The position numbers were made by a program, and so were the translations under genes. Positions 2,795 to 63,200 of a DNA stretch of 64,000 nt are shown piece by piece. This stretch comes from Warburgia ugandensis. Lineage: Eukaryota; Streptophyta; Magnoliopsida; Canellales; Canellaceae. Position 1 is the first letter of the stretch. Each line of letters starts with the position of its first letter. Under the pieces are notes generated by a model, which saw nothing but the letters and a program-made list of their open reading frames with translations, made no database searches and was not told the origin of the DNA. The stretch lies in contig CP141136.1 of NCBI GenBank assembly GCA_035236585.1, positions 28,426,449 through 28,490,448 of the forward strand, given 5' to 3'.

Positions 2795-2893
<99 letters not shown>

Positions 2894-2930
2894 GAGACAG
2901 ACAGAGACAGAGACAGAGACAGAGAGAGAC

Positions 2931-2962
<32 letters not shown>

Positions 2963-3454
2963 AGAGATAGAGAGAGAGAGAGACAGAGACAGAGAGAGAA
3001 CCACCCCTCTTTCCCTAACCTCCTAGTGCATGCACCTCCCTTCTTCTTTATATAACTTTTCTCATAAGAGTTGATTTTGATTCAAACTCCAATTTCCTCT
3101 CCCTTATTCAGGTTTTTGCATTTAATGTCTTAATTATCTTGAATTTTCTCTTTTTTCTAGGAAGTTTCCTCATCTTAATCTTATCCATCTAAGTTGATAC
3201 GTATCATCCAATTTGTGTTTGATTGATCTACTACACACAAGACCAAATTAGAATCATCTAAACCATTCATTACACATTTGATTAGCTCTGATGATTATCT
3301 GACTGTTAAATTTTGCTATTTAATGGTTGGATGGTCAATTAGAGCTAAAGTGCAAAATTTATGCAAAATTTCAAAATTGATTGCTTAGATGATCTAATCA
3401 GATGTTAGATTAAGGGTATTTAAGGGTATTTTGGCTAAAATTGAACACTTAACA
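2649..3454 (-). repeat. Part of the 3' LTR of the LARD-like element
   Basis: Matches 10036-10660 over its length: GA-rich purine tract, then the sequence around TTTATATAACTTTTCTCAT and further unique sequence, ending CACTTAACA (minus-strand LTR start TGTTAAGTG). The rest of this LTR is 1-38 and beyond the window edge, split by the solo LTR at 39-2648. Confidence 0.7.
2797..2998. repeat. (AG)n microsatellite with (GACAGA)n tail
   Basis: An almost uninterrupted (AG)n tract to about 2885, followed by a compound GACAGA/GATAGA tract to about 2998. It belongs to the LARD LTR; the other LTR has a shorter tract at 10201-10245. Long Arg-Glu or Leu-Ser reading frames here are by-products of the repeat. 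Confidence 0.95.
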
Positions 3455-11477: not shown

Positions 11478-11936
11478 CTAGATCTCCACCAAAGTAGCCA
11501 AAAATGTCTCGTGTCCCTTTCTCAAGCTTGACTTTACTTGAAAGGCTGAGAACATTTCCACCTTGCATTTCTTGTTTGTTTTTGCTTTGTTATTCATCAC
11601 CATAGAAACAAAGCATGATTGACGTTTATCATTGAACAACAATCCACCAAGGTGTGGCATCAACACCACTTTAGCCTGCAAAAAGAACTCAATTCCTAAT
11701 ATAATATCAAAGTAATCTAAAGGGACAAACATGAGTGTTGTCTTTCCTTTCCAATCACCAATCTGGACATCAGCATCATTAGCCATCCTTGGGATGGTTT
11801 GGGCCTCCCAATTTTTAGCTCTTATTTTTCTTGACTTCTGTACAACCTTTATATTGAGGTGAGATTCCTTTCTATTAGCAACAAAGTTATATGTTGCACC
11901 ACTATCGATCAGAGCCAATACATTAACTCCATTCAC
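11478..11936 (-). pseudogene. Retropepsin-like aspartic protease region of the Gypsy fragment
   Basis: Opens with VNVLALIDSGATYNFV, the catalytic Asp-Ser-Gly loop of retroviral-type proteases, followed by IILGIEFF, the typical second motif (ILG). The Gypsy RT region follows downstream. Part of a dead element. Confidence 0.85.
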
Positions 11937-11959
11937 TTTGGCTTAAACATACATCAACC

Positions 11960-19100: not shown

Positions 19101-22100
19101 GCTGGCCATCTAAAAGCACATTATTCAGGTCTACTTGCAACAGAGGTCAAACAGATTTGTTTTAATTCTATGACAAGTCTAACTACCGTGCTCCTAACAG
19201 GAATGGCCATTTCATCATAGTCTAGTCCATGTCATTAATTGTAGTCTGCCTCATACAAAGCAATTGTCATTATTTCCATTTTGTTATATTCATTCATTTG
19301 TGACTTATTACACCAGGCAGCCTGAGGACCATTACCTGCATCTATTACAATGTAGGCTTCCATTTCCTTCATCATGGCTCAAATCAATCTAGTACTAGTT
19401 CTAGCATTGAGAAAGAGGCATATTCACTAGAATGTGTTCCCAAAGCCTGATCACAAAGGTAATGAAAACTGTAAAACATCTCAAATAGTTGTGTAGTATC
19501 TGATCTCGGATAAATTGTAGCCGGACCTAGATAAGAACTACAAGGCCAAAGCTTTGAAAAGATAAGCCCTAGTTATCTCAAGGAAGAAGGATCACAGAAT
19601 TTACTCTCTGATAATAGCAAGGCAAGAGATGAAAACTTTTAGTGAAGCAAGAGATATGCCAACACAAAGCTCAGTGTTGTAGCTGAGCAAAGATGCAAGT
19701 GAATGCCTTAGAAGAAAGCCTGTTTAGATGAAATGACGAAAACTGCTAATAGCGAGACATGCTTGACAACATGAATAACTGTAATCAGCTATGTGACCAT
19801 TAAGCAGCGAAGACCTGTAACAGCCCGAGGGCTCCACACACAACAATATTGTCCGCTTTGAAGATTGGGGCCCATATCACCCAGCCCCCTCACGGCTTTG
19901 TTCTTCCCTTGCGGAAAAAGGCCTTGTTACATGTAAAGTCATCATAACTCTTATCAACAGCCCAGTAACTTTCCCCTTAGCGATGTAGGACTAACTCTTA
20001 GACCTGCCAAACGCCACTTAACAGCAGTCCTACCCCCCTTAGGGAACATGCGTCCCCTCGTGTTGCGCCCACACGTACCTGAGAACCACATGCCAGCCAG
20101 CCCACATTGGGTCAGGGGTTGGCTCTGATACCATTTGTAACAACTCGGGGTTCCAATAGTCACAATATTGTGCGCTTTGGGGCGCCCATACACCCCTCAT
20201 GGTTTTATTCTTCCCAAGTTTCCTAAGGAAAACGCGTTGTGACCGTTAGAGTTCCCCAAACTCTTATAAACAGTTCAGTTTCCTCTCCCCAAGCAATGTG
20301 GGACTAATTCTCTGTCCCTCACCCTAACCTAGAAGCCTGCCAACCTTCTTTTGGCCCGCCCTCATCAACCTAGGATTTCACATAAAACTAGGCCGATGAG
20401 GGCGGGCCAAGAGAAGGCTGGCAAGCTTCTAGGTTGGGGTGAAAGACAGAGAGTTAGTCCCACATTGCCTGGGGAGAGGAAACTGGGTTGTTTATAAGAG
20501 TTTAGGGAACTCTAATGGTCACAACATGTTTTCCCTAGGAAACTTGGGAAGAACAAAACCGTGAGGGGTGTATGGGCGACCCAAAGCGGACAATATTGTG
20601 ACTATTGGAATCTTGGGGTGTTACAAATGGTATCAAAGCCAATTCCCCTCGTGGTGTGGTGGCTAGCCACACGCGGGCGCCTGGTCGTGGCTATCACGCG
20701 GGGACGCGTGTTCCCTAAGGGGGGAAGATGTGAAGCCCTGGGCTGATGAGGGCAGGCCAAGAGAAGGCTGGCAAGCTTCTAGGCTAGGGTGAAGGACAGT
20801 TAGTCCCACATTGCCTGGGGAGAGGAAACTGGGTTGTTTATAAGAGTTTGGGGAACTCTAATGGTCACAACATGTTTTCTCTAGGAAACTTGGGAAGAAC
20901 AAAACCATGAGGGGTGTATGGGCGCTCCAAAGCGGACAATATTGTGACTATTGGAACCTTGAGGTGTTACAAGACCTATGACGAAAAGGAGAAGCAACAT
21001 CCTATTAACAAGATAGTGGTTCCTGTAATGTCTCTAACAATAACCATTTTTTAGTACAACAGCAAAACATCATTGAAAATTGTGGAGCACCCTGCCTTTG
21101 TAATTGATGATGCTTTGTCTTAGCTACTCTATTCTATGGGTATGAGAAATAGAAGGGATAGATCATCATGTAAAATTATGGAACTTAAGATAGATCAGAA
21201 AATACTTGAGAGGTGCACTCACCTCATACTCCTAATGTATTTAATTCATGAGCCATGATGCAATGTAAAGTATTGAAACAAGAAAACATAAATCGAATAT
21301 GTGATTATATGTTTTAAGGAGAAAATCCAAGTATAGTTGGCATATCACTTCCCTGGATACTACATGCCATATATGTGGGTTGGCACAAGAAATTAACCAA
21401 AGATCCACCAACTCTAACTAGGAAGGAAACAATCTGATAAAATAACATCACACAAAAGATAAAAGTTCTAATAAGAAAGAAAGTGTGGAAGAACTCTATT
21501 GAACTTGTGTAGAATGAGAAGAGTAACTTGTTTAATAGATTATGAAGGTAGTTATTTGCACCACCTGTGTCCCTCCGGCCTTCACTAAATGCCTCTAAAT
21601 TAAGTAATTAATTCACTACCCAACGTGTCCCACATTTGAATTCTGAGACAACCTTTAGTTTTTTAAATTGTAGTGATTTCATTCAAAAATATTTTAATCG
21701 TTAAATATATTTAATTAAAGCTATGGTTGAAAAATCCAACAATGGCCCACTTAATTAAGTGTATTTAACAAAATAACTCACTTAAACATATTTAGTAAAC
21801 TCTGATAGGCCAGACAAATCCAATATGCAACAAATGATAGGCATCTTTCTGTTTGAACCTTATTGTAATCATTGTGAAGTTTCATCTGATTGATATGCAA
21901 CATTGAACCAAGCAACATGAAATAATACAATTGGAGGTGCCATGCACATAACAATGCCATCAAATAAGATGTTTGAATTTCGGTTGCATAGTACTGTAAA
22001 ATGGCCATGTAATGATGCCAGATTCATAAGCAATCAGAGAGAACCCTTACTCTCAAGAGAGGCAGCACTATCTCTATACTCAAATAGGTGAAGTCCTTAG

Positions 22101-51106: not shown

Positions 51107-53790
51107 AATGAGGGTCAATATTGTTTTACTTTTCTCCTGATCTTATTTTACTTTGTTTCTTGATATTTGTACCTTGTTTTAAAACCTTCTACCCAATCAT
51201 GAAGATAGCTCTAAATATTATCAGCTAATGAAATAGAAAAAAGTCAATTATTTTATAACATCTCCTCCATTCATCAGTTTCTTCCTTTGATACATATTAA
51301 TAGCATTGTACTACATTTAGTTCACCTCTTGTCTTACTACTCATCTATTTCAACATCCTCATTTCCGCCATGCTCATCTTATGAACATGATGTTCCTTAA
51401 CTGCCCAACACTCTGATCCATAGTGCATGGCTGGCCTTATGACCATCCTATAGAAATTTTATTTTAGTTTGAGTGGCACCCACCTATCACACAAAACTCC
51501 AAATGCACTTCTCCATTTGGTCCAACCCCTTGGATTCTCTAGGTGACCTCCCTCTCAATCTCTCCACTCTCATGAATCACTAATCCTAAGTACCAAAAGT
51601 GGTCTTTTACGAGGACTTCTTGGTTATCAATCTTAACTGGTGTTTCACTCCTACTCCTCTCCTTGCTATAATTGCATTTATTATATTTTGTCTTAGTTCA
51701 GTTGATTTTAATCCTTTAGATTCTAATGCTTCTCTCTATAACTCTAGCTTTGTGTTTACACCCTCCCTTGTCTCATCAAGTAAGACTATATCATCTACAA
51801 CAGCATGCACCATGGAATCTCCTAGTGAAGATGTTTTGTTAACTCATCCATAACCAACGTGAAAAAGTATGGGCTCAATGTCGATCTTTGGTGCAATCCT
51901 CCAGTGATAGAAAAATCCCCAGTTTCGCCACTAATGGTCTTAACATTTGTTACCACTCCCTCGTACATATTTTTAATTATGCCTATATACTACTGTGAAA
52001 CCCCTTTCTCGCCCAACACCCTCTATATTAACTCTCTAGGGACTTTATCATAAGCTTTCTCTAAGTCGATAAAGACTACATAGAGGTCTTTCCTCCTCTC
52101 CGTATATTTCTCTATCAATTGTCTTAGTAAGAAAATAGATTTCATGGTAGACCTCCCAAGCATGAAACTAAATTGGTTCTCCAATACACTTGTTTCATGT
52201 TGTAGTCTCTTCTCAATCACTCTTTCAAAAAGTTTCATAGTGTGGCTCATTGGTTTGATCCCCTGATAATTACTACAGCTCTGTATGTCTCCTTTATTCT
52301 TATAAATTGGTAAAATAGAGCTTTTGCTCCATTCATCTAGCATTTTCTTTGATTTTATACTCTTGTTAAACAACTTGGTCAACCAAACTACTCCAATATG
52401 TCCCATATGCTCCCAAACCTCTATTAGTATACTATAGGGGCCCATGGGCTTTCTTGATTTCATCTTTTTCAAGGCCACTTTCACTGTAGGTATTCTAATC
52501 CTACATTCATATCTATAATATCCAATGTTACTTAGGTTTACATTATTTTCAAACCCTATATTCTTAGAGCCATTGTCATTTGACAATTTTTGAAAGTAAG
52601 TTTCCCACCTTTATTTGATCTCATCATCTTTGGCAAGTACCCTTTGATCATCACTTTTAATGCACCGGACATGATCTAAATCCTTACCCTTCTATTCTCT
52701 TATTTTTGCAAGTTTAAACACATCTTTCTCACCTTCTCTTGATCGTAGTCTAATATAGAGGTTATCATATGCCTTATGTTTAGCCTCACTTACTATTCTC
52801 TTAGCAACCTTTTTAGCATTCTTATACTATTCATAGTTTTCATTATTTCTAGTCTTCTGTCATGCTTTAAAATAGAACTATTTTTCTTTAATAACTTTTT
52901 GCACTATTTCACACCACCACCATGTTTCCTTTACTAATTTCCCTTTACCTTTAGATACTCCAAGACATCTTTTGCCAATTTCTTAGTGGACTCAACCATA
53001 TTAGTCCACATGGAGTTTACTTCTGTTTCAAGTTCCAGTTTCCTTCCATCATCAACATATTTGTGAATGAGGTTATTTTCTCACCTTTTAAGTTCCACTA
53101 CTTAGTTTTTGGACACCCATTAAGTTCATTTCCTTTCTTCCATCTTTTAATATAGATATCCATAACCATTAACCTATGTTGTGAGGTTAAACTCTCACCA
53201 GGTATCACCTTACAATCCTTACACACTAATCTTTCCATATTCCTAAGTAGAAAATGTCTATTTGAATTTTATGAAGTCCACTTTTAAAGGTTATTAAGTG
53301 TTCGTCCCTCTTCTTAAAAAATGTATTTGCAATGGCCAAGTTATATGACAAAGCAAAATGGAGAATAGTTTCCCCCATCTCATTTTCTTCTCCTATACCA
53401 TACCCTCAATGTATCCTATCATATCCTTCCTTTTCTTTTTCTACATGGGCATTTAAGTTTGCTCCTATAAATATCCCCTTAGTGTTGGGAATTTCTAGCA
53501 TGACTCCCTCCATATCTTCCCAAAACTGTCTCTTGATTATATTTTCTAACCCTACTTGTGATGCGTATGCAATTATAACATTTATGTTCTGCGCTCCTCG
53601 AACAAGTTTTATTATTATAATTCTATCACTAATTCTTTTAACGTCCACAACTTTATCCTTTAATTCTTTATTCATTATTATTTCTATGTCATTTTTTTTG
53701 TTATCCTTTCCTATGTACCAGAGTTTATACCCATTGATTTCTTTAGTTTTAGCCCCCTTCCACTTAGTTTCTTATATACAAGTGCTGTTG
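51107..53790 (-). mobile_element. RTE-type LINE, minus strand, broken, with endonuclease and RT
   Basis: The endonuclease part (53330-53765) reads IIIIKLVRGAQNINVIIAYA, FWEDMEG.MLEIP and GANLNAHVEKEKEGYDR. The RT part has a 187-codon open stretch (52023-52586): KMKSRKPMGPYSILIEVWEH, NYQGIKPMSHTMKLFERVIE, FSFMLGRSTMKSIFLLRQL and FIDLEKAYDKVPRELI. The later RT part is at 51360-51980. The 3' UTR is about 51109-51330 and matches 58773-59010. Several stops and frameshifts, for example between endonuclease and RT, so it is dead. The GD of the endonuclease motif reads GA. It lies between two LTRs of the chromodomain element family. Confidence 0.85.
52023..52586 (-). pseudogene. RTE LINE reverse transcriptase, palm region
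   Basis: 187 codons open, containing LPIYKNKGDIQSCSNYQGI (fingers), QFSFMLGRSTM and VVFIDLEKAYDKVPRELI (motif A). Motif C (FADD) should follow at lower coordinates, where the frame is broken. Most similar by eye to plant RTE/BovB-like LINEs. Confidence 0.85.
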
Positions 53791-53924: not shown

Positions 53925-56430
53925 AATCATGTAAATATGAAAATCATTTTCAACAAATGATTCATAAAACTCAAATAAATTTAATTCAAGTTGATAAATC
54001 TAGTTTGTGTAATCAATCATGATCAATCACATATAGTCCTCACTAACGAATCAGTAGAGGCCACTACCCCATTGATCAGATGGGGCCACTCATATTACCA
54101 TGCGGTAGGTCCATGTAAACCTCTTTAATAAATTAGTAGAGGCTACTAGCCAGCGCAATCAACGCAGGTCCAAATGTGTCTAGCTAACATATCAGTTAAG
54201 CCCGCTAATACCATTGATCAAACAAGTCTATTAAATATCTCCAAAGATGTCTCTAATCGAACCACTACCTTAATGATGTCTCATCAAGGTCCACTAAATA
54301 GTACATTGTTTGGCCAGATTTCACTAAAAGAATTGATAAATTAATTGATACCTTGAAATTCACATTTCATTTCCATTTCTTAGTTCGCAATGTAAAATGT
54401 TTCATTTGAAACATAACTTATGAATCAAAAATCACTTCCAAGTTCAATTAGACTTCAATACTTCATTCATTTTCATTTTGAAATAAGGAAATTTTTAGCA
54501 ACAGGTCATAAGAACATAATTCTTTCCAAACTTTGCGTTTCACTTGAAAAGATCACTATTAAACTTGTCATAGTAAATTCCAAAACTCAATAATACAATG
54601 GAAACTAAACATAACCTTTGAAATCAAATTCGTTTATTTTTTAAATTGTGAAAAACTGAACTCAAATGCTACAAGGGAAATCAAATACACATACATCACT
54701 ATAATCCCATTAAGTATACCCAACTAGAAATTATTCACCCATGAAATGATAAAATTCTAACTCAATTTGTAACAAACATCAAAATGTTTCAACTATAACC
54801 AAATGGGAGTGTTTAATTCTACAAGTCATACATATTACAACTTAACACAAAGTGTTAAATGAATGGAAGGCTCCTAATAAGAACTCAATCTAATCCATCC
54901 ATCTCTGATTTGACCTAGCCACCTTAATGCATAGTAGCTTAACATGCATGACTTTCACTAAAGGTCAAACACATACATGGTTACACCTACAACTCTTGCT
55001 ATTCAAAACAAGAAGACACAATTTTGCATCCTTTGTCACTTTAGAATTTAGTCATGTAAGAAGTAGTAGTTTGGCTGAGAAATAGTAATGAATGGAAGTT
55101 TCTAAGGTTAATAACTTGGATATTTTTCTAAGTTTTTCTATTGTTCAACAAGATAAACAATAGCACCCTTCTGAAATTCATGCATCAAGGACATTTTAAG
55201 CAAGATACCTAAATTCCAGCATGAATTTAAGACCAAATCAACCTAGTTGCATCCAAACTCTTCAAAAATTCAAACAAGCTTAATAAGATTTTAGGGATTG
55301 TAGTATGATTTCTGTGAAATTTTGACCATACAAATCAAATCTACTAGCTGCTCTTAAAAAGAGTTCCTAAGAAACAACTCAAATTAGAATATGAAAATTT
55401 GAAACTACTTGTTTACAATTATTAGTAAGAAAAAACATTAAGTACAATCATAAGCCCATACATCTAGTAGTTAATCATGTAACAATAAAGAATTTATCCA
55501 TAAATCCCCTAAACTTGTGATTATTATGTGCATGTTGAGATGATTTATACATCTCTAGTGCTATCACACTCCAACTAATTCATAGCATGCTTCTTTAGGA
55601 CAAGAATAACAAACTCAATTTTATCATATTTAAAAGTACTAAATTTGGTAGGATCTAGCAAACTTACTTTAGATCTGATGATATCTAAAAATATATTTAG
55701 AACATTCTAAATTCATGAAATTCAAATGATGGAAAATAAATCATGACTAAACTAAGATTAGTGAAACTTACCATTTTTTTCTAATCTTTATCTTGTATCT
55801 ATCCACTCGATTCCTTCAATTTTCAACTCCAAGACATGTTACTCTATTGTGTCACTTGTTATTGCAAATTTAGAAGAAGAAGAGATCATGGAAATGGATG
55901 TTTTTGAAAGAAAGAAGAAAAGGGCTTATTAGATTTAGAATTTTTTCTTTTCACCTCTCTCTTAAACCAATTAATTCTCATTCATAAATTTAATACAAAA
56001 TGGGGGTAACGTGGCTTGAATGAGTGTAACATCATGGTAGGAATGGTTGTAATGTAGTTTAACACCCAACATTTACTACTATAAATAAGTGGTATTCAAC
56101 ATTTAATGTCTATTTTAAAGTAAAATGGGTGAAATTGTTACATTTATTTCTCTTAAAATGAAATCAACATCTAAATGATGGTCAAGTATTTCACATTTTT
56201 TATCTTAAAGACTTTTCATTTCATCTAGTGGGTCCTAGGGACATTCGCTAGGTGGGATCAATGGACAAAATGACATAATTGTCCCTTTTTAATAAGTAAG
56301 AGTGTTATTATCAATTTTGAACCACCTAGGTCTTTTTCTAAAATTGTTTTATTCTATGTTTGACTCATACTTGGTTTCTAATTAGTTTTAAAGACTATTT
56401 CATCTTTAAAAGATAAAATGTTTCTCATTA
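53925..56430 (-). repeat. Truncated LTR of the chromodomain element family
   Basis: Resembles 48800-51100: a block around ACTACCCCATTGATCAGATGGG (54070) like the CACCTCACTGATCAGATGAGG block at 48905, repeated CACTAA.GAATCAG-type phrases, then AT-rich sequence. The left end is cut by the LINE and its 5' edge duplication. The right end near the palindrome array was not resolved. No gene. Confidence 0.55.
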
Positions 56431-56451
56431 GTGTTTAGTATGCTTTTTGTG

Positions 56452-58497
56452 TGATGTACTTGTTATTACCTCAAGTCTTCGAACATGCAATCACTCATGT
56501 CTTAGGACTTGTTATTACTTTTAAGTACTTTAGACTTGAAATATCTTCTCAAGCCCTAAGGTCTATAATCACTTCTAAGCTTTTTAAGCTTGTTTGTACT
56601 TTGTCTTTTTTACTTGCAATATTTTCTCAAGCCACACAGATTGCAATACTTTTTGAAGCCTTAGGCCCTAATACCACTTTCAAGCATTTTAAGTTTGCTT
56701 TATTTCAAGTCTTTTTTACTTGCAATCACTTCATGTCCTTTGGACAAGCAATTTTTTTCAAGCCATTTGGCTTGCAATACTTGAAGTCTTAGGACTTGCT
56801 TTACCTCATGTCTTCAGACTTCTAATCACTTAAGTCTTTGAACTTGCTTTATCATATTTCTTCACACTTGTAATATTTTTTGAGCCATTTGGCTTGCAAC
56901 ACTTCAAGTATTCAAACTTGATTTACCTCAAGTCTTTTGACTTTTGAAGTCATTTGACTTGCAATACTTTTTAAGTCTTAGGCTTATAATAACTTTCAAG
57001 CTTTTAAGCTTGCTTTGCTTTAGGTCTTTTTTACTTGCAATACTCTTGCAATATTTTCTAAAGCCTTAGGGCTTGTAATCAATTGCAAGATTTTTAAGCC
57101 TACATTACTTTAAGTCTATTTGACTTGCAATCTCCTCAAGTCCTTTGGACTTTCAACTTGGCTTGTAATACTTATGCAAGCCCTTTCAAGCTTTTTAAGC
57201 TTACTTTATTTTATGTCTTTTTTACTTGTAATCACCTCAGTTCCTTTGGACGGTCCTATCAATATTTTTCAAGTCACTTGGTTTGCAATACTTTTTTCAA
57301 GCCTTCAAGGTTCTTTATTATTTATTTATTTTTTACTTTCAATCACTTAAAGTCCTTCTGACTTGCATATTTCAGTTCTTAGGACTTGCTTTACCTCAAG
57401 TAGTAATCACTGACATCCTTAGACTTGCTTTACCTTAAGTCTTTGGACTTGTAATATTTTTCACATCACTTGGCTTGCAATACTTCAAGTCTTCAAACTA
57501 GCAATACTTTAGATCTTCAGAATTTCTTTACCTAAAGTCTTTAGACTTGCAATACTTCAAGTCTTTGCATTTGCTATATTTTCTCAAAACACTTGAAATG
57601 CAATACATTATAGCCCTTAGAGCTTGCAATCACTTTCAAGCTTTTGAGCTTGCTTTACTTTAAGTCTTTCTTAGTTGCAATCACTTCAAGTCCTTTGGAC
57701 TTGCAATATCTTTCAAGCCACTTGGCTTGCTTTACCTTAAATATTTGGACTTGCTTTAACTTAAGTTTTTTTAACTTACAATCATCTCAAGTTCTTTGGA
57801 CTTGAAATATTTTCTCAAGCCACTTAGCTTGCAGTACTTTCCAAGACTTAGGACTTGCAATCACTTTCAAGATTTTTAAGTTTTCTCTACTTCAAGTATT
57901 TTAGACTTGCAATCACCTATCTTCTCAAACAACTTTGGCTTACAATACTTTTCTAGGCCTAGGGTTTGTAGTCACTTTCAATCTTTTTAAGCTTACCTCA
58001 TCTTAAGTCTTATAGACTTGAACTCACCTTAAGTCCTTTGGACCTATAATATTTTCTCAAGCCTCTTAGCTTACAATACTTTTCAAGCCTTAGGAATTGC
58101 AATCACTTTCAAGCTTTTTAAGCTTGATTTATTTCAAGTCTTCTAGACTTGCTATTACCATAGTCCTGTGGACGCCCAATATTTCTTCAAGCAAAACCTT
58201 AGGGCTTGTAGTTACTTTCTTTCGAGACTTGCATTTGTTCTTATTACATTTCTATCATACACTTGTTACAATTCTTTAGTAAAAATCTCATTAATTTATC
58301 AATCTTCATCATCACCATCATTTTGTCACTACATTTGGCATCACATTTTCTTATTTTGGTTAATTTTGTTTGGATTAATCACTCTTTAAGTCTTTTGATT
58401 TGCAATCACCGTTCATGCTTTTCGAGCTTGCAATCATCTTTCATGTTCAGTTTGCGAGTTTATCATCATTTTCCAAGTTTTTAACTTGCAATCATTA
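56452..58497. repeat. 2-kb array of short palindromic units in a higher-order order
   Basis: Roughly 25-30-bp units of the form CAAG-NN-TTT-NN-CTTG followed by CAATCAC or CAATATTTT. Frequent unit types: AAGTCTTTTTGACTT, AAGTCCTTTGGACTT, AAGCCACTTGGCTT, AAGCCTTAGGGCTT and AAGCTTTTTAAGCTT. They tend to follow each other in that order, making a higher-order repeat of about 110-130 bp (AAGCTTTTTAAGCTT-type units near 56579, 56997, 57189, 57632, 58109). Arms differ between unit types but stay complementary. ORFs on the plus strand are by-products. Not recognised as a known satellite. Confidence 0.85.
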
Positions 58498-58772
58498 AAA
58501 AAAGGTTATATGATTTTATTAACTCCCTTTTATCACTATGTCATTCGAATTTCACATCACATTTTCTCATATTATTAGTTTCTCTTAAGACCTTCTTTTG
58601 ATTGATCTTTCACATTTCTTTCAAAATGTTCTTGAAAAAAAAAGGGCAATTCAAGCCCTCATTTGATTGTTTTGTCTAACTTGGATTCTATTCTTTTGAC
58701 TGTCAAACTTTGAAAGTCCACAAATCAAAGTAGGACATCTATAGAGATCTAAATTTGTATTATAAATAATTA
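58498..58772. other. Short AT-rich stretch between array and LINE tail; nothing recognised
   Basis: Contains TTTCACATCACATTTTCTCAT-like words resembling 58330-58350 at the end of the array, so it may be a decayed continuation. Confidence 0.4.
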
Positions 58773-59010
58773 AATGAGGGCCAATCTTGTTTTTTCTATG
58801 TTTTACTTTGTTTCTTAATATTTTTACCTCGTTCTAATCTTTTACTTTGTTTTAAAACCTTTGTCCCAATGATGAATAAAGCTATGGATTTGATCATCCA
58901 ATGAAGGGACTTGAAAGAAAGTCAATAATTTTGTAACATGTCCCCCATTCATCAATTTGATCCTCTATGACATATTAATAGTTTTGAATTAGATTTAGTT
59001 ACCCAATTCT
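58773..59010 (-). mobile_element. 3'-UTR-only copy of the RTE LINE
   Basis: Aligns to 51109-51330 over about 235 bp (AAATGAGGG(C/T)CAAT, TTTACTTTGTTTCTTNATATT, CATTCATCA.TTT, CATATTAATAG). Read on the minus strand it is a LINE 3' end truncated before any coding sequence. Confidence 0.65.
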
Positions 59011-59029
59011 ATCCTGCACGATACTATTT

Positions 59030-59395
59030 CTTACCATTGAGCTATTTTGGTTTCTATTGCCCTTTCTTATCACTAGGCTATTTTGGTTAGTGTTACACTA
59101 GGCAATTTTGGTTACCATTGCACTAGACTATTTGGTTAACTCACAAAAGTTGTAGCACTATGTTATTTTAGTTTTTGTTGCTTTTTCTTAGTATTATGTT
59201 ATTTTGATTAGCATAGTGCAAAGTTTTAATAGTATGTTATTTTAGTTTCTACTTCTTTTTTCCATCGCTATGTTGTTTGAGTTAACATAGCATAACATTT
59301 CAACACTGCACTATTTTTGGCTATGTTGTATTTTTTTTAGCTTTGTGCTTTTTTGGTTAATGCAATACAACATTTCATCCTGAATGACGTTAGCC
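59030..59395. repeat. Degenerate repeat built on CTATTTTGGTTA
   Basis: Around ten loosely spaced variants of TAGGCTATTTTGGTTA / TATGTTATTTTAGTTT / GTTAACATAGCA over 360 bp, drifting from G-containing to T-rich forms. Unrelated by eye to the array at 56452. Confidence 0.6.
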
Positions 59396-59399
59396 AAAA

Positions 59400-60284
59400 T
59401 TGTTATGTCAAGTGTACCATTTTCTACTTGAGAAACTTAGTCCCATATTGACCTGATACATTGAACAACTTGCTTTCTAGTATTATAAAAGGAAAGTACC
59501 TAATAACCAAAGAAAAGGGGAAGAGGAGTAGGAATCCACTTGATAATAAGTACAATTAGCAGTCTTGAGATCAACTATATTAAACTCAAGAGAGTTTGTT
59601 TAATTACTTTCTAGAATGTGGTTAACTTTCAATTAGAGTTTTTAATTGCTCAATTAAGAGTTCAAAACATTTTGAAATCTTCTGAGTTTAGGAAAAGCTT
59701 AAAGAATCATCTTAACTGAGGGCAAGGGTTCATTAGCAACTTTTAGGTAATCATTTTCTTTTTAGTTCTTATTTGGTTTAGCCCAGCTTGGTTTATTTTA
59801 ACTTGTTTTGAGTTTGCTTTAGTTTTCTTTTTTGAAAGTAGTTTAACTAGTTTAGTTTACTTTTTCAAGTGTCTCTTGCCTTTAGTTGCTCTTGATTTCA
59901 CTTTTCATGTGGTCTTCCATATGTTTGATTTTTGTCTCTAGGTTGATATTAGTGCTATGCAATTTTCCAAGGAGAGAATTAGCACTACATTAATGTATCT
60001 AGATTTCTAAAATTAGCTTTTATTATAAGTTTTCTTAAATTTTTATTTCTGATCTCCATAGCTCATTTGGTGGCACCAGAGGTTGACATAACTGATCTAT
60101 TCTAGGAGATTAAGAATTCATATCTTTGGTTATTTTGCTTTAAGAAGGCTAGGTACTATATCCAAAACTATAGATAGCGAATTAGTCATGGTTTCCAATA
60201 CAAAAACTAAAGGTTTTCTATTCAATAGCAATGCTTAGACTATTAATTGGGTATCACATATCATTCTTTACAATCATGACCTAA
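59400..60284 (+). other. Possible LTR and primer-site remnant
   Basis: Has a TATA-like TATTATAAAAGG (59491), a leader-like stretch, and at 60066 ATTTGGTGGCACCAGAGGTT, which could be a primer-site region after an LTR. No partner LTR or coding region was found. Confidence 0.3.
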
Positions 60285-63200
60285 TATCATGCCCCACAAT
60301 GCAAAATATTTATTATAAGGGTAGAAGCATGACAGATTATTAGGGTAGTCAATTATGAGACCAAATGCTTAGTCTCATATGATATAAAACTTTCAAAACA
60401 AATATTTATTATCATGTCATATAAGGTTCTACATTTGTTATCAGTTTATTCTCAATTGATAGAGATATTTAACAACATCTCGAGGAAGTTGCTTTTTGTA
60501 AATGTTCTTAACTACTTATCATATAATATATATTTGTTATATTTTAACAAATGTGCAAGATTGGTATGGATTGTCTCAATTCATTGTTTCTAATAGATAG
60601 GATTTTATAGCTTGACAATTCATACAAATTTCCTTTAATTAGGCCATATAACAGGTTTTGGAATTTAATCAATACTACAATGCATATGAAAGAACATGAT
60701 TTAGAAATTTTTTTTCCATAATTCAATCACATTAGTCTAGTCTAAAAATAATTCATATTAATGAGTTCGATTCAAATGAACAAAACTTAGTTCATATGTT
60801 CAAGCACAATTAACATATAGTGATGTCCACCGACTTGCTTTCAGACAGGTTCACTATCCCATTGTCAGGTGAGGTTTGGTAACCAATTGGTTGGAGTTCA
60901 AGTAATACTCTCTAATATTATATCAACATAGTCCATATACCCAATATTAAGTGCTCATTTTTGTATAAATTACCCTCATTTAGCATGACATTTGATATAT
61001 TTTTAGAAATTTATTAAAAAATATATCATTTGAAATTTTTATCATCTAGTTGTAATTTGTTGAATTTTCAAGGTTAGATGAAGATTCAATGTTTGTGTAA
61101 AACCACTTGTAAAATAGTATGAATTATGACTTTTTTTATGCTTTGTAGGTGGTAGATCAAAATCCACGTGGTCAGATCAAGTTGATTCACATTCTGAATA
61201 GTATATAAAGCTTAGATTATAATGGATGGCTCAGATCAACCCATGATGTACTTTGGATGATCCAAATCAAATTCATAAGCACTAATTCAAGTACCAACAT
61301 TTTCCAAGTATAGAGGGTGTATGCATCATTTTTAGTGCATTCAAAATTTCCATGCATTCCACCATATCACAAGGCTTATACTTGAATCCAAGCAAGATGA
61401 CAACAAGTCAAGGCTTACTAGATGGAGAAAACATGTGGTGTAATGCTATGAGGGAGTGTAAGAACTTGCGTGAAGGAGTTTCTAGCCAATCTTTTTCCTA
61501 GTTTATGGGCACAAAGCCCTAAAGTTGATGACTACCAAGAACTACTTGACCATGGCTGGAGATGATCTAGCTCCTTCCTTCATAAATTGGAGATGGCAAA
61601 GACATATTTCCCTTCATACAATATCCATCTCAAGGCACATAATTTTTTTTCTCTTAAAGAGCAAGTTCGTGTACCTATAAGAATGAAAAAGTTTCTAGAT
61701 CGGACAATAAATGTGAAGAAGTCAAGCAATTTAAGAATGGACCAAATTTCACAAAGGGTGTAGGCTGCTCAATCCATGACACATCCACTACTAACGGATA
61801 TATTTTTCATAACTATGAGGGGAAACATAAGTCTGAATAGTATATAAGATATTTGTTAAAAAAAATAAATAATGTCATAAGTGCATGCATTAGAAGTGGA
61901 TAATTTCCTTTTGATGTTCAACTCCCAAAGCTTATTATCAAGATGGTGACACCTCAAGCTAAGAAGAAGCTAACTAAAGTATTTGAGGGTCAACAAATAT
62001 CTCTAAAGTTTATCATGTTAGATAGAAGACATTGAGGAGAAAAATACCCAAGTTTTAGATTCAAGAAGTCATCGAATGAAGAGCTTGAAGTTAGCCACTC
62101 GTTACTGCTCACTTGAATAGTAATTGTGTTTTTATAGTATTTTGCTCTTGTTTTTCAACTCTATTTTAGGTAGAGGTTTATATAAATTTTTAGTGAGAAA
62201 TCAAAGTTTAATTTGTTGAATTTCAGTGAACATGTATAACATGGTTTGTTATACACGTGATGAACAGTGCATCTTTGCAATTGAATATCTCAATATTTGT
62301 TTGTTCCTATTGAAATGTAACCATTTCATTGGATTACTTTCTATCAAATTGTATTAGGTACAATATTTCAATGAAAAATTCCATCAAGAAGTCAGTGAAA
62401 TTAGTGGCCAAAGTTGACAAAATCATCAAGGATTGTGACTATTCATGAAGCACAAATAGGATCTCAAATTTATACTATGCTAGTGTCACAAGAGCATGAT
62501 AATTTCTAATTACTATTGTGCTAACAAAACTCTTTTGTTACTATTACAGATGCAAGTTGTGCTTCGAATTCTTTCGTAATTGAGTTGAAATTTGAAGTGA
62601 AGATTCTTGGCTACAAGATGGTAAGTAAGACATCAAGATATTACTAAGAAAAGCTACTTGGATTTGAAAATTTTTTAATGTCATTTTTTTAAATAAATTA
62701 CTCCTTTTTAATCATTGTAATGACCAAGCAAGTGAAAATTTGGTTATTTTTTTGTTTAGTTTTAGGACTCGTCTTTTTTTTTTTTTTTTTAAGTTTTAGG
62801 TTAGCTTAGGTCATTTAAATTTCATTTTTTTAGAGTCTTGATTTGAATAATTTACACATAATTCAATAACCATATTAGGTTATTTTTTATTTAGGGTTAA
62901 AATGATCCTAATGTAAATTAAAAACATCACTTACAAATTTCTAATATTTTAATTGTCTTAAAAGTTAATTTTAAAATTAATTTTAATTTGAAATTGTTAG
63001 ATTTGGTTTTAGAATAAAATTTTCATTTTGTGTTATTACTTTTCATAGTGGATGCTTAGAAATAAAATCCTTGATCCATTATACTTAGGTTTTATGTAGA
63101 ATGCTTAAGATTGTTGATCTATATATTTTTGTAAAGTTTAATAATTTCTAAATTAATTTTTTAAAGAAATATTCCTTTGAGAAGATAATAGTAGTTTCAA

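What the first reader, a model, noticed from the sequence alone, without database searches (positions are those of the whole stretch)
56452..58497. Array of covarying mini-palindromes in a higher-order order
About 2 kb of units near 27 bp. Most are inverted repeats of the form CAAGxx-TT-xxCTTG with a short CAATCAC/CAATATT linker. Five unit types (arms AAGTC/GACTT, AAGTCC/GGACTT, AAGCC/GGCTT twice with different loops, AAGCTT) recur in the same order every 110-130 bp. Different arms that each keep their own complement are not expected from simple drift of one satellite. Either an ancestral five-unit block with palindromes was amplified, or pairing has been conserved. Transcribed, it would give a string of small hairpins. 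Unit order and palindromes are seen; any function is inference.
Basis: seen in the sequence. Interest (0 to 1): 0.75.

Follow-up and report, generated by a model that had tools for sequence, protein, structure and literature searches.

The report
Decayed hairpin array in retrotransposon tail
A two-kilobase string of small hairpin-shaped repeats looks like the worn tail of an ancient jumping gene; its hairpins go back to one ancestral five-hairpin block and show no sign of having been kept intact since, so it is ordinary in kind.

Summary
56452-58250 (ragged tail to 58497) is a tandem array of five near-palindromic units, CAAGnnn-loop-nnnCTTG, recurring in fixed order in a block of about 131 bp; the inner arms differ between units and match their own partners. 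Related arrays lie at about 39 places in the genome by my count of a capped search. The array is one module of an old LTR-retrotransposon-like element: 5' LTR, internal region without detected coding domains, array, spacer, 3' LTR (about 58739-60290 here). 15 of 18 fetched arrays share the right flank. A tRNA-Arg(ACG)-type primer site follows the LTR in 3 of 6 stretches tested. Tandem arrays before the 3' LTR are known from Ogre/Retand elements; membership is not shown. Pairing was not kept: over 652 units from 19 arrays, arms match the block about as well as loops and linkers (inner arms worse), and with unit type fixed by context the two arms change independently (468 of 746 paired; shuffled 458.6 +/- 6.7). 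Without that filter a small excess of compensated changes exists (71 against 52.0 +/- 5.9), which I attribute to mis-typed units. How the ancestral block got its different matched stems remains open.

The parts
56452..58250 (+). Tandem array of five near-palindromic unit types in a block of about 131 bp
57637..58240 (+). Best-preserved block copies (starts 57637, 57743, 57868, 57979, 58110)
   Evidence: most matches fall in the corresponding query part
58251..58497 (+). Degenerate tail of the array
58498..58738 (+). Spacer between array and putative 3' LTR, shared with other loci
58739..60290 (+). Putative 3' LTR; both ends approximate (the right end may reach about 60335)
54000..56450 (+). 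Unrelated dispersed repeat abutting the array on the left; two other copies (L031, L032) end at the same point and carry no array
51122..51322 (+). Fragment resembling the start of the LTR (75% to 58799-59000); possibly a remnant of a related LTR, link to this element not shown

Best explanation
The array is the 3' non-coding tandem-repeat segment of an old, decayed LTR retrotransposon in which no coding domain was found. Shown: the array lies just upstream of the same LTR-like sequence at many dispersed places; in two elements read as sequence, and a third by coordinates, a second direct copy of that sequence lies several kb upstream; 5' copies run on into an internal region, some with a tRNA-Arg-type primer site; and arms have decayed much like loops and linkers, independently of each other. 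Inferred: while active the element carried many nearly identical 131-bp blocks of five small hairpins, built by slippage or strand transfer during reverse transcription or replication; the copies inserted long ago and decayed neutrally; the hairpins have no retained function in these copies. The differing matched stems predate the amplification and most likely arose by hairpin-templated mutation, possibly by selection on element RNA.
For: Dispersed arrays: 82 matches, 40 of 50 candidates scored. Shared right flank in 15 of 18 fetched arrays, 7 of them reaching window 60231-60292. Direct repeats around internal region and array: L023+L041 72.9% over 1051 columns, L030+L045 70.6% over 667; C7:49.31-49.32 Mb by coordinates. 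LTR end: 18 of 52 matches stop at query 203-225, 10 others besides the query itself run on past 400. Primer site 15, 12 and 12 of 18 bases in 3 of 6 stretches; tRNA-Arg(ACG) gene with that 3' end. Arms no better kept than loops and linkers; arms independent within type. No exact copy of a 36-base two-unit pattern: 24 sites with 1-3 mismatches, control 0.
Against: No target-site duplication was established and no coding domain or RT found. 3 of 18 arrays (L016, L019, L022) lack the right flank. Three of six primer-site stretches do not match (10, 8 and 7 of 18), and one that does (L042) is an LTR copy not shown to carry an array. Internal regions fall into two unrelated sets. In all 652 units double compensated changes exceed shuffling (71 against 52.0 +/- 5.9, 0 of 1000) and T3 alone does so at context 0.8 (9 against 4.5 +/- 1.8, 25 of 1000). 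Base-matched, outer arms are slightly better kept than linkers for C and T. In 8 of 19 arrays, the window included (0.756 against 0.714), block copies are more alike within than between arrays, so some later or array-specific amplification is not excluded.
Confidence: 0.8

Rival explanations
1. Pairing is maintained in the genomic copies because the hairpins act, for example as RNA structure or as sites for a dimeric protein.
For: Excess of compensated changes in the unfiltered 652 units (71 against 52.0 +/- 5.9); better-than-shuffled folding of two stretches, z -3.11 and -2.26, which any palindromic repeat would also give.
Against: Inner arms are the worst-kept part (0.743); with context at 0.8 or more compensated changes are 16 against 14.6 +/- 3.4, at 0.9 or more 1 against 3.7 +/- 1.7.
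Confidence: 0.07
2. It is an independent dispersed minisatellite, or is carried by another kind of transposon, and lies beside LTR-like sequence for other reasons.
For: 3 of 18 arrays lack the right flank; two unrelated internal regions occur; the window's left neighbour is an unrelated repeat; no target-site duplication established.
Against: 15 of 18 arrays have the same right flank in the same orientation; direct-repeat pairs enclose internal region plus array; sharp LTR end and primer site.
Confidence: 0.1
3. Centromere or classical satellite array.
For: Tandem organisation with a higher-order block.
Against: Fetched arrays are 0.45-1.29 kb at dispersed sites on several chromosomes, tied to LTR-like flanks. 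No ChIP data were available.
Confidence: 0.03

Closest known systems
Minisatellite array of Gmr9/GmOgre in soybean (PMC3305785, parts 1 and 2 of 3 read)
   Same: Array between coding region and 3' LTR, several unit families interleaved in repeated order, kilobase length
   Different: GmOgre repeats are of unrelated sequence apart from a shared end of two of them, mostly near-identical, in elements with genes; here five related palindromic units in decayed elements without detected genes
[quoted passage not shown]
   Same: Position before the 3' LTR; about half of surveyed elements have such arrays; family-specific repeats of unknown function
   Different: Retand elements there carry gag-pol and antisense ORFs and LTRs of 315-1,194 bp; none was found here and the LTR is about 1.5 kb
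3'UTR tandem repeats of Ogre elements as source of satellites (PMC7004042, passages read; the 2009 paper behind it was not seen)
   Same: Short arrays inside LTR elements, between direct repeats
   Different: No expansion into long satellite arrays was seen among the arrays read here
Template switching that creates and maintains hairpins (PMC8794818, abstract and outline seen)
   Same: Would explain matched arm changes without selection
   Different: Described for RNA genes; not tested on this array

Membership tests
LTR retrotransposon | Two direct LTR copies around an internal region | tested here: met
   Two elements by sequence, a third by coordinates; not seen for the window copy
LTR retrotransposon | Primer-binding site after the 5' LTR | tested here: inconclusive
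   3 of 6 stretches match tRNA-Arg(ACG) at 12-15 of 18 bases, 3 do not
LTR retrotransposon | Target-site duplication of about 5 bp | tested here: inconclusive
   Ends too decayed to place; looked at by eye in the alignments only
LTR retrotransposon | gag-pol coding domains | tested here: not met
   No such domain of this element in the stretches searched; fits only a non-autonomous or gutted member
Tat lineage (Ogre/Retand) | RT phylogeny and additional RNase H domain | not testable with these tools
   No RT or RNase H of this element was found
Tat lineage (Ogre/Retand) | Tandem array in the 3' region before the 3' LTR | tested here: met
   a common feature, not exclusive
Tat lineage (Ogre/Retand) | Non-Met primer tRNA such as tRNA-Arg | tested here: inconclusive
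   shared with other non-chromoviral lineages (PMC6317226, passages)
Structurally conserved RNA or hairpin array | Compensated arm changes in excess within unit types | tested here: not met
   With context filter 16 against 14.6 +/- 3.4; without it 71 against 52.0 +/- 5.9
Centromere satellite | Long arrays bound by CENH3 | not testable with these tools
   No ChIP data; the arrays read are short and dispersed

The most novel reading that the evidence does not exclude
The active ancestor carried dozens of small hairpins with differing but matched stems in its 3' region, and the matching was actively maintained then, by selection on its RNA or by hairpin-templated copying during reverse transcription, so that the array was a structural device of the element and not a by-product of tandem duplication.
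Probability: 0.3. Interest if true: 0.5.

Novelty: new member of a known kind. Interest (0 to 1): 0.3.

Why it matters
It shows that covarying palindromes in a satellite-like array need not mean conserved structure: here the covariation sits between the unit types of one ancestral block and is absent within types once type is fixed by context. If the matched stems could be traced to template switching, such element tails would be a natural record of that process.

Tried and rejected
Coding reading: no Pfam domain attributable to this element in the stretches searched (open stretches of L023+L041 listed). The RVT_1 stretches (window 52026-52610, minus strand; L027) lie in another repeat shared at 87-90% among window, L020 and L027. 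An antisense plant mobile domain hit in L019 (18.5 bits, cut-off 34.9) was not seen in L021, L033, L029 (antisense frames only) or L023 (six frames) and is not used. Rfam at gathering thresholds: no match in the window. tRNA genes in the window: none.

Later homogenisation inside arrays: over all pairs, block copies are about as alike within (0.693, 621 pairs) as between arrays (0.688, 11160 pairs; 154 of 200 block copies used), but 8 of 19 arrays, the window included, are more alike within. So it is not the main process overall but is not excluded for single arrays. Young copies: none exact.

A first tRNA pattern found nothing; a second found five sites, one of which was checked as a tRNA-Arg gene.

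Literature: the listings show no title or abstract start on palindromic multi-unit arrays in LTR retrotransposons. Only open-licence PMC papers are held and the listed papers were mostly not opened, so this is not proof of absence.

Full report
What is there. The window lies at C11:28426449-28490448 of a 1.12-Gb genome in 14 contigs; that it is a plant is my inference. Between 56452 and 58250, with a ragged tail to about 58497, runs a tandem array of near-palindromes of the form CAAGnnn-loop-nnnCTTG with linkers of 8-11 bp. Five unit types recur in the same order in a block of about 131 bp. A wrap-around alignment places 67 near-complete units and 15 well-covered block copies in the window. 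Perfect hairpins with arms of 6 or more number 15 against 2.35 +/- 1.47 in 300 dinucleotide shuffles. In the block 14 of the 15 inner pairs are Watson-Crick and one is T-G. Extraction by outer anchors alone gives four of the five types as the commonest inner sequences; the fifth, T6, is exact only twice in 372 units and its form is less certain, although column majorities over 266 context-selected units give all five block hairpins.

Where it occurs. The array gives 82 matches in its own genome, 40 of 50 candidates scored, at 66-85% identity apart from itself; I count about 39 separate places. A 36-base two-unit pattern finds 24 sites with 1-3 mismatches, none perfect, control 0. Of 20 stretches fetched, 18 hold an array; two (L031, L032) were fetched for the left flank and gave no array match. 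The 18 and the window are the 19 arrays below.

What it belongs to. 15 of the 18 fetched arrays share the sequence to the right of the window's array; in 7 the match reaches window 60231-60292, and L016, L019 and L022 have none. The right flank alone gives 69 matches, 40 of 275 candidates scored, several directly beside arrays. In L023+L041 a second copy lies upstream in direct orientation (72.9% over 1051 columns), in L030+L045 likewise (70.6% over 667); a third case is seen by coordinates at C7:49.31-49.32 Mb. L019 and L024 show a 5' copy and an array, but no full 3' copy. Searching with one copy and the sequence after it, 18 of 52 matches stop at query 203-225 while 10 others besides the query itself run on past 400 (40 of 116 candidates scored), as expected of an LTR end. 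Behind such ends, 3 of 6 stretches (L019, L030, L042) match the complement of the tRNA-Arg(ACG) 3' end at 15, 12 and 12 of 18 bases (shuffle p at most 0.003); the other three reach 10, 8 and 7. The 3' end was found at five sites, one checked as a tRNA-Arg(acg) gene by ARAGORN. No coding domain of the element was found, and two unrelated internal regions occur with the same array and LTR. From 5' copy to array is about 3.7 kb in L019, 4.5 kb in L030 and 8.2 kb in L023. No target-site duplication was established.

The window copy. Array, spacer and putative 3' LTR (58739-60290, ends approximate) are present. To the left another repeat abuts the array at about 56450; two other copies of it end at the same spot without an array. 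A fragment at 51122-51322 resembles the LTR start. So the window copy is incomplete or interrupted.

Is pairing kept? Of 914 aligned units, 652 with at most two missing hairpin positions were used. Match to the block is 4186/5086 (0.823) in outer arms, 2766/3723 (0.743) in inner arms, 1421/1680 (0.846) in loops and 4860/5852 (0.830) in linkers. Base-matched, outer arms, inner arms and linkers are 0.885, 0.789, 0.885 for A; 0.757, 0.719, 0.717 for C; 0.899, 0.862, 0.863 for T; G occurs only in arms, 0.746 and 0.639. So outer arms are equal or slightly better kept, inner arms equal or worse; the outer arms are the same in all types and anchor the alignment.

Coupling of arms. Among 266 of the 652 units whose type is supported by loop and linkers at 0.8 or more, 468 of 746 inner pairs are Watson-Crick, against 300.8 +/- 11.5 when shuffled across types and 458.6 +/- 6.7 within types; double compensated changes number 16 against 14.6 +/- 3.4. 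At 0.9 or more (87 units) they number 1 against 3.7 +/- 1.7. Against this reading: in all 652 units they number 71 against 52.0 +/- 5.9 (0 of 1000 shuffles) and 1075 of 1769 inner pairs are Watson-Crick against 1014.1 +/- 11.8; T3 alone at 0.8 shows 9 against 4.5 +/- 1.8 (25 of 1000). I attribute these to units placed in the wrong type, because they vanish with stricter context, but this was not proved, and the strict sets are small.

Timing. Over all pairs, block copies are about as alike within arrays (0.693; 621 pairs) as between them (0.688; 11160 pairs); array by array, within exceeds between in 8 of 19, the window among them (0.756 against 0.714). LTR pairs are 71-73% alike. The simplest reading is that the blocks were similar at insertion and that the copies are old; the methods behind these figures differ, and array-specific amplification in some copies is possible.

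How it most likely worked. Inferred: an active element, or one mobilised by a partner, carried a tail of many copies of a five-hairpin block, amplified by slippage or strand transfer during reverse transcription or replication; the tail was copied at each insertion and then decayed. That related units carry different but matched stems is the one point that duplication and drift do not explain. Template switching can create and repair stems without selection (PMC8794818, abstract); past selection on element RNA is the rival. RNA folding of two stretches beats shuffles (z -3.11 and -2.26), as any palindromic repeat would.

What is known. Tandem arrays before the 3' LTR are described for GmOgre, with five interleaved minisatellite families (PMC3305785, parts 1 and 2 of 3), for about half of the Retand elements surveyed (PMC11963269, passages), and for Ogre elements as a source of satellites (PMC7004042, passages). 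Non-chromoviral plant elements use tRNA-Arg among other primers (PMC6317226, passages). It works like these 3' arrays; membership in the Tat lineage is not shown, since no reverse transcriptase was found.

Verdict. A real, accurately described feature with an ordinary home: the decayed 3' array of an old LTR element. The hairpins are inherited, with no good evidence that they were maintained.

Noticed in passing
window 20119-20649: Large imperfect palindrome (about 530 bp matching its own reverse complement at 87.6%), with related copies at about 20728-20972.
   Followed up: partly
window 52026-52610 (minus) and 11481-11942 (minus): Reverse-transcriptase (RVT_1) and retroviral-type aspartyl protease fragments of other retroelements.
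   Followed up: no
L026 (C6:29.02 Mb), C5:75.99 Mb, C6:14.25 Mb: Array pieces at different chromosomes with the same 36-base match (all three), two of them with identical match statistics, hinting at more recent copying of one decayed array.
   Followed up: no
L017:2086-2547: TELO2 ARM-repeat coding stretch (E 2.6e-30) about 1.5 kb upstream of an array, so one array copy lies close to a host gene or its fragment.
   Followed up: no
C7:49314767-49317151 and C7:54140424-54142895: The LTR-like segment itself occurs as several adjacent copies.
   Followed up: no
window 2797-2999: AG-rich simple repeat of about 200 bp.
   Followed up: no
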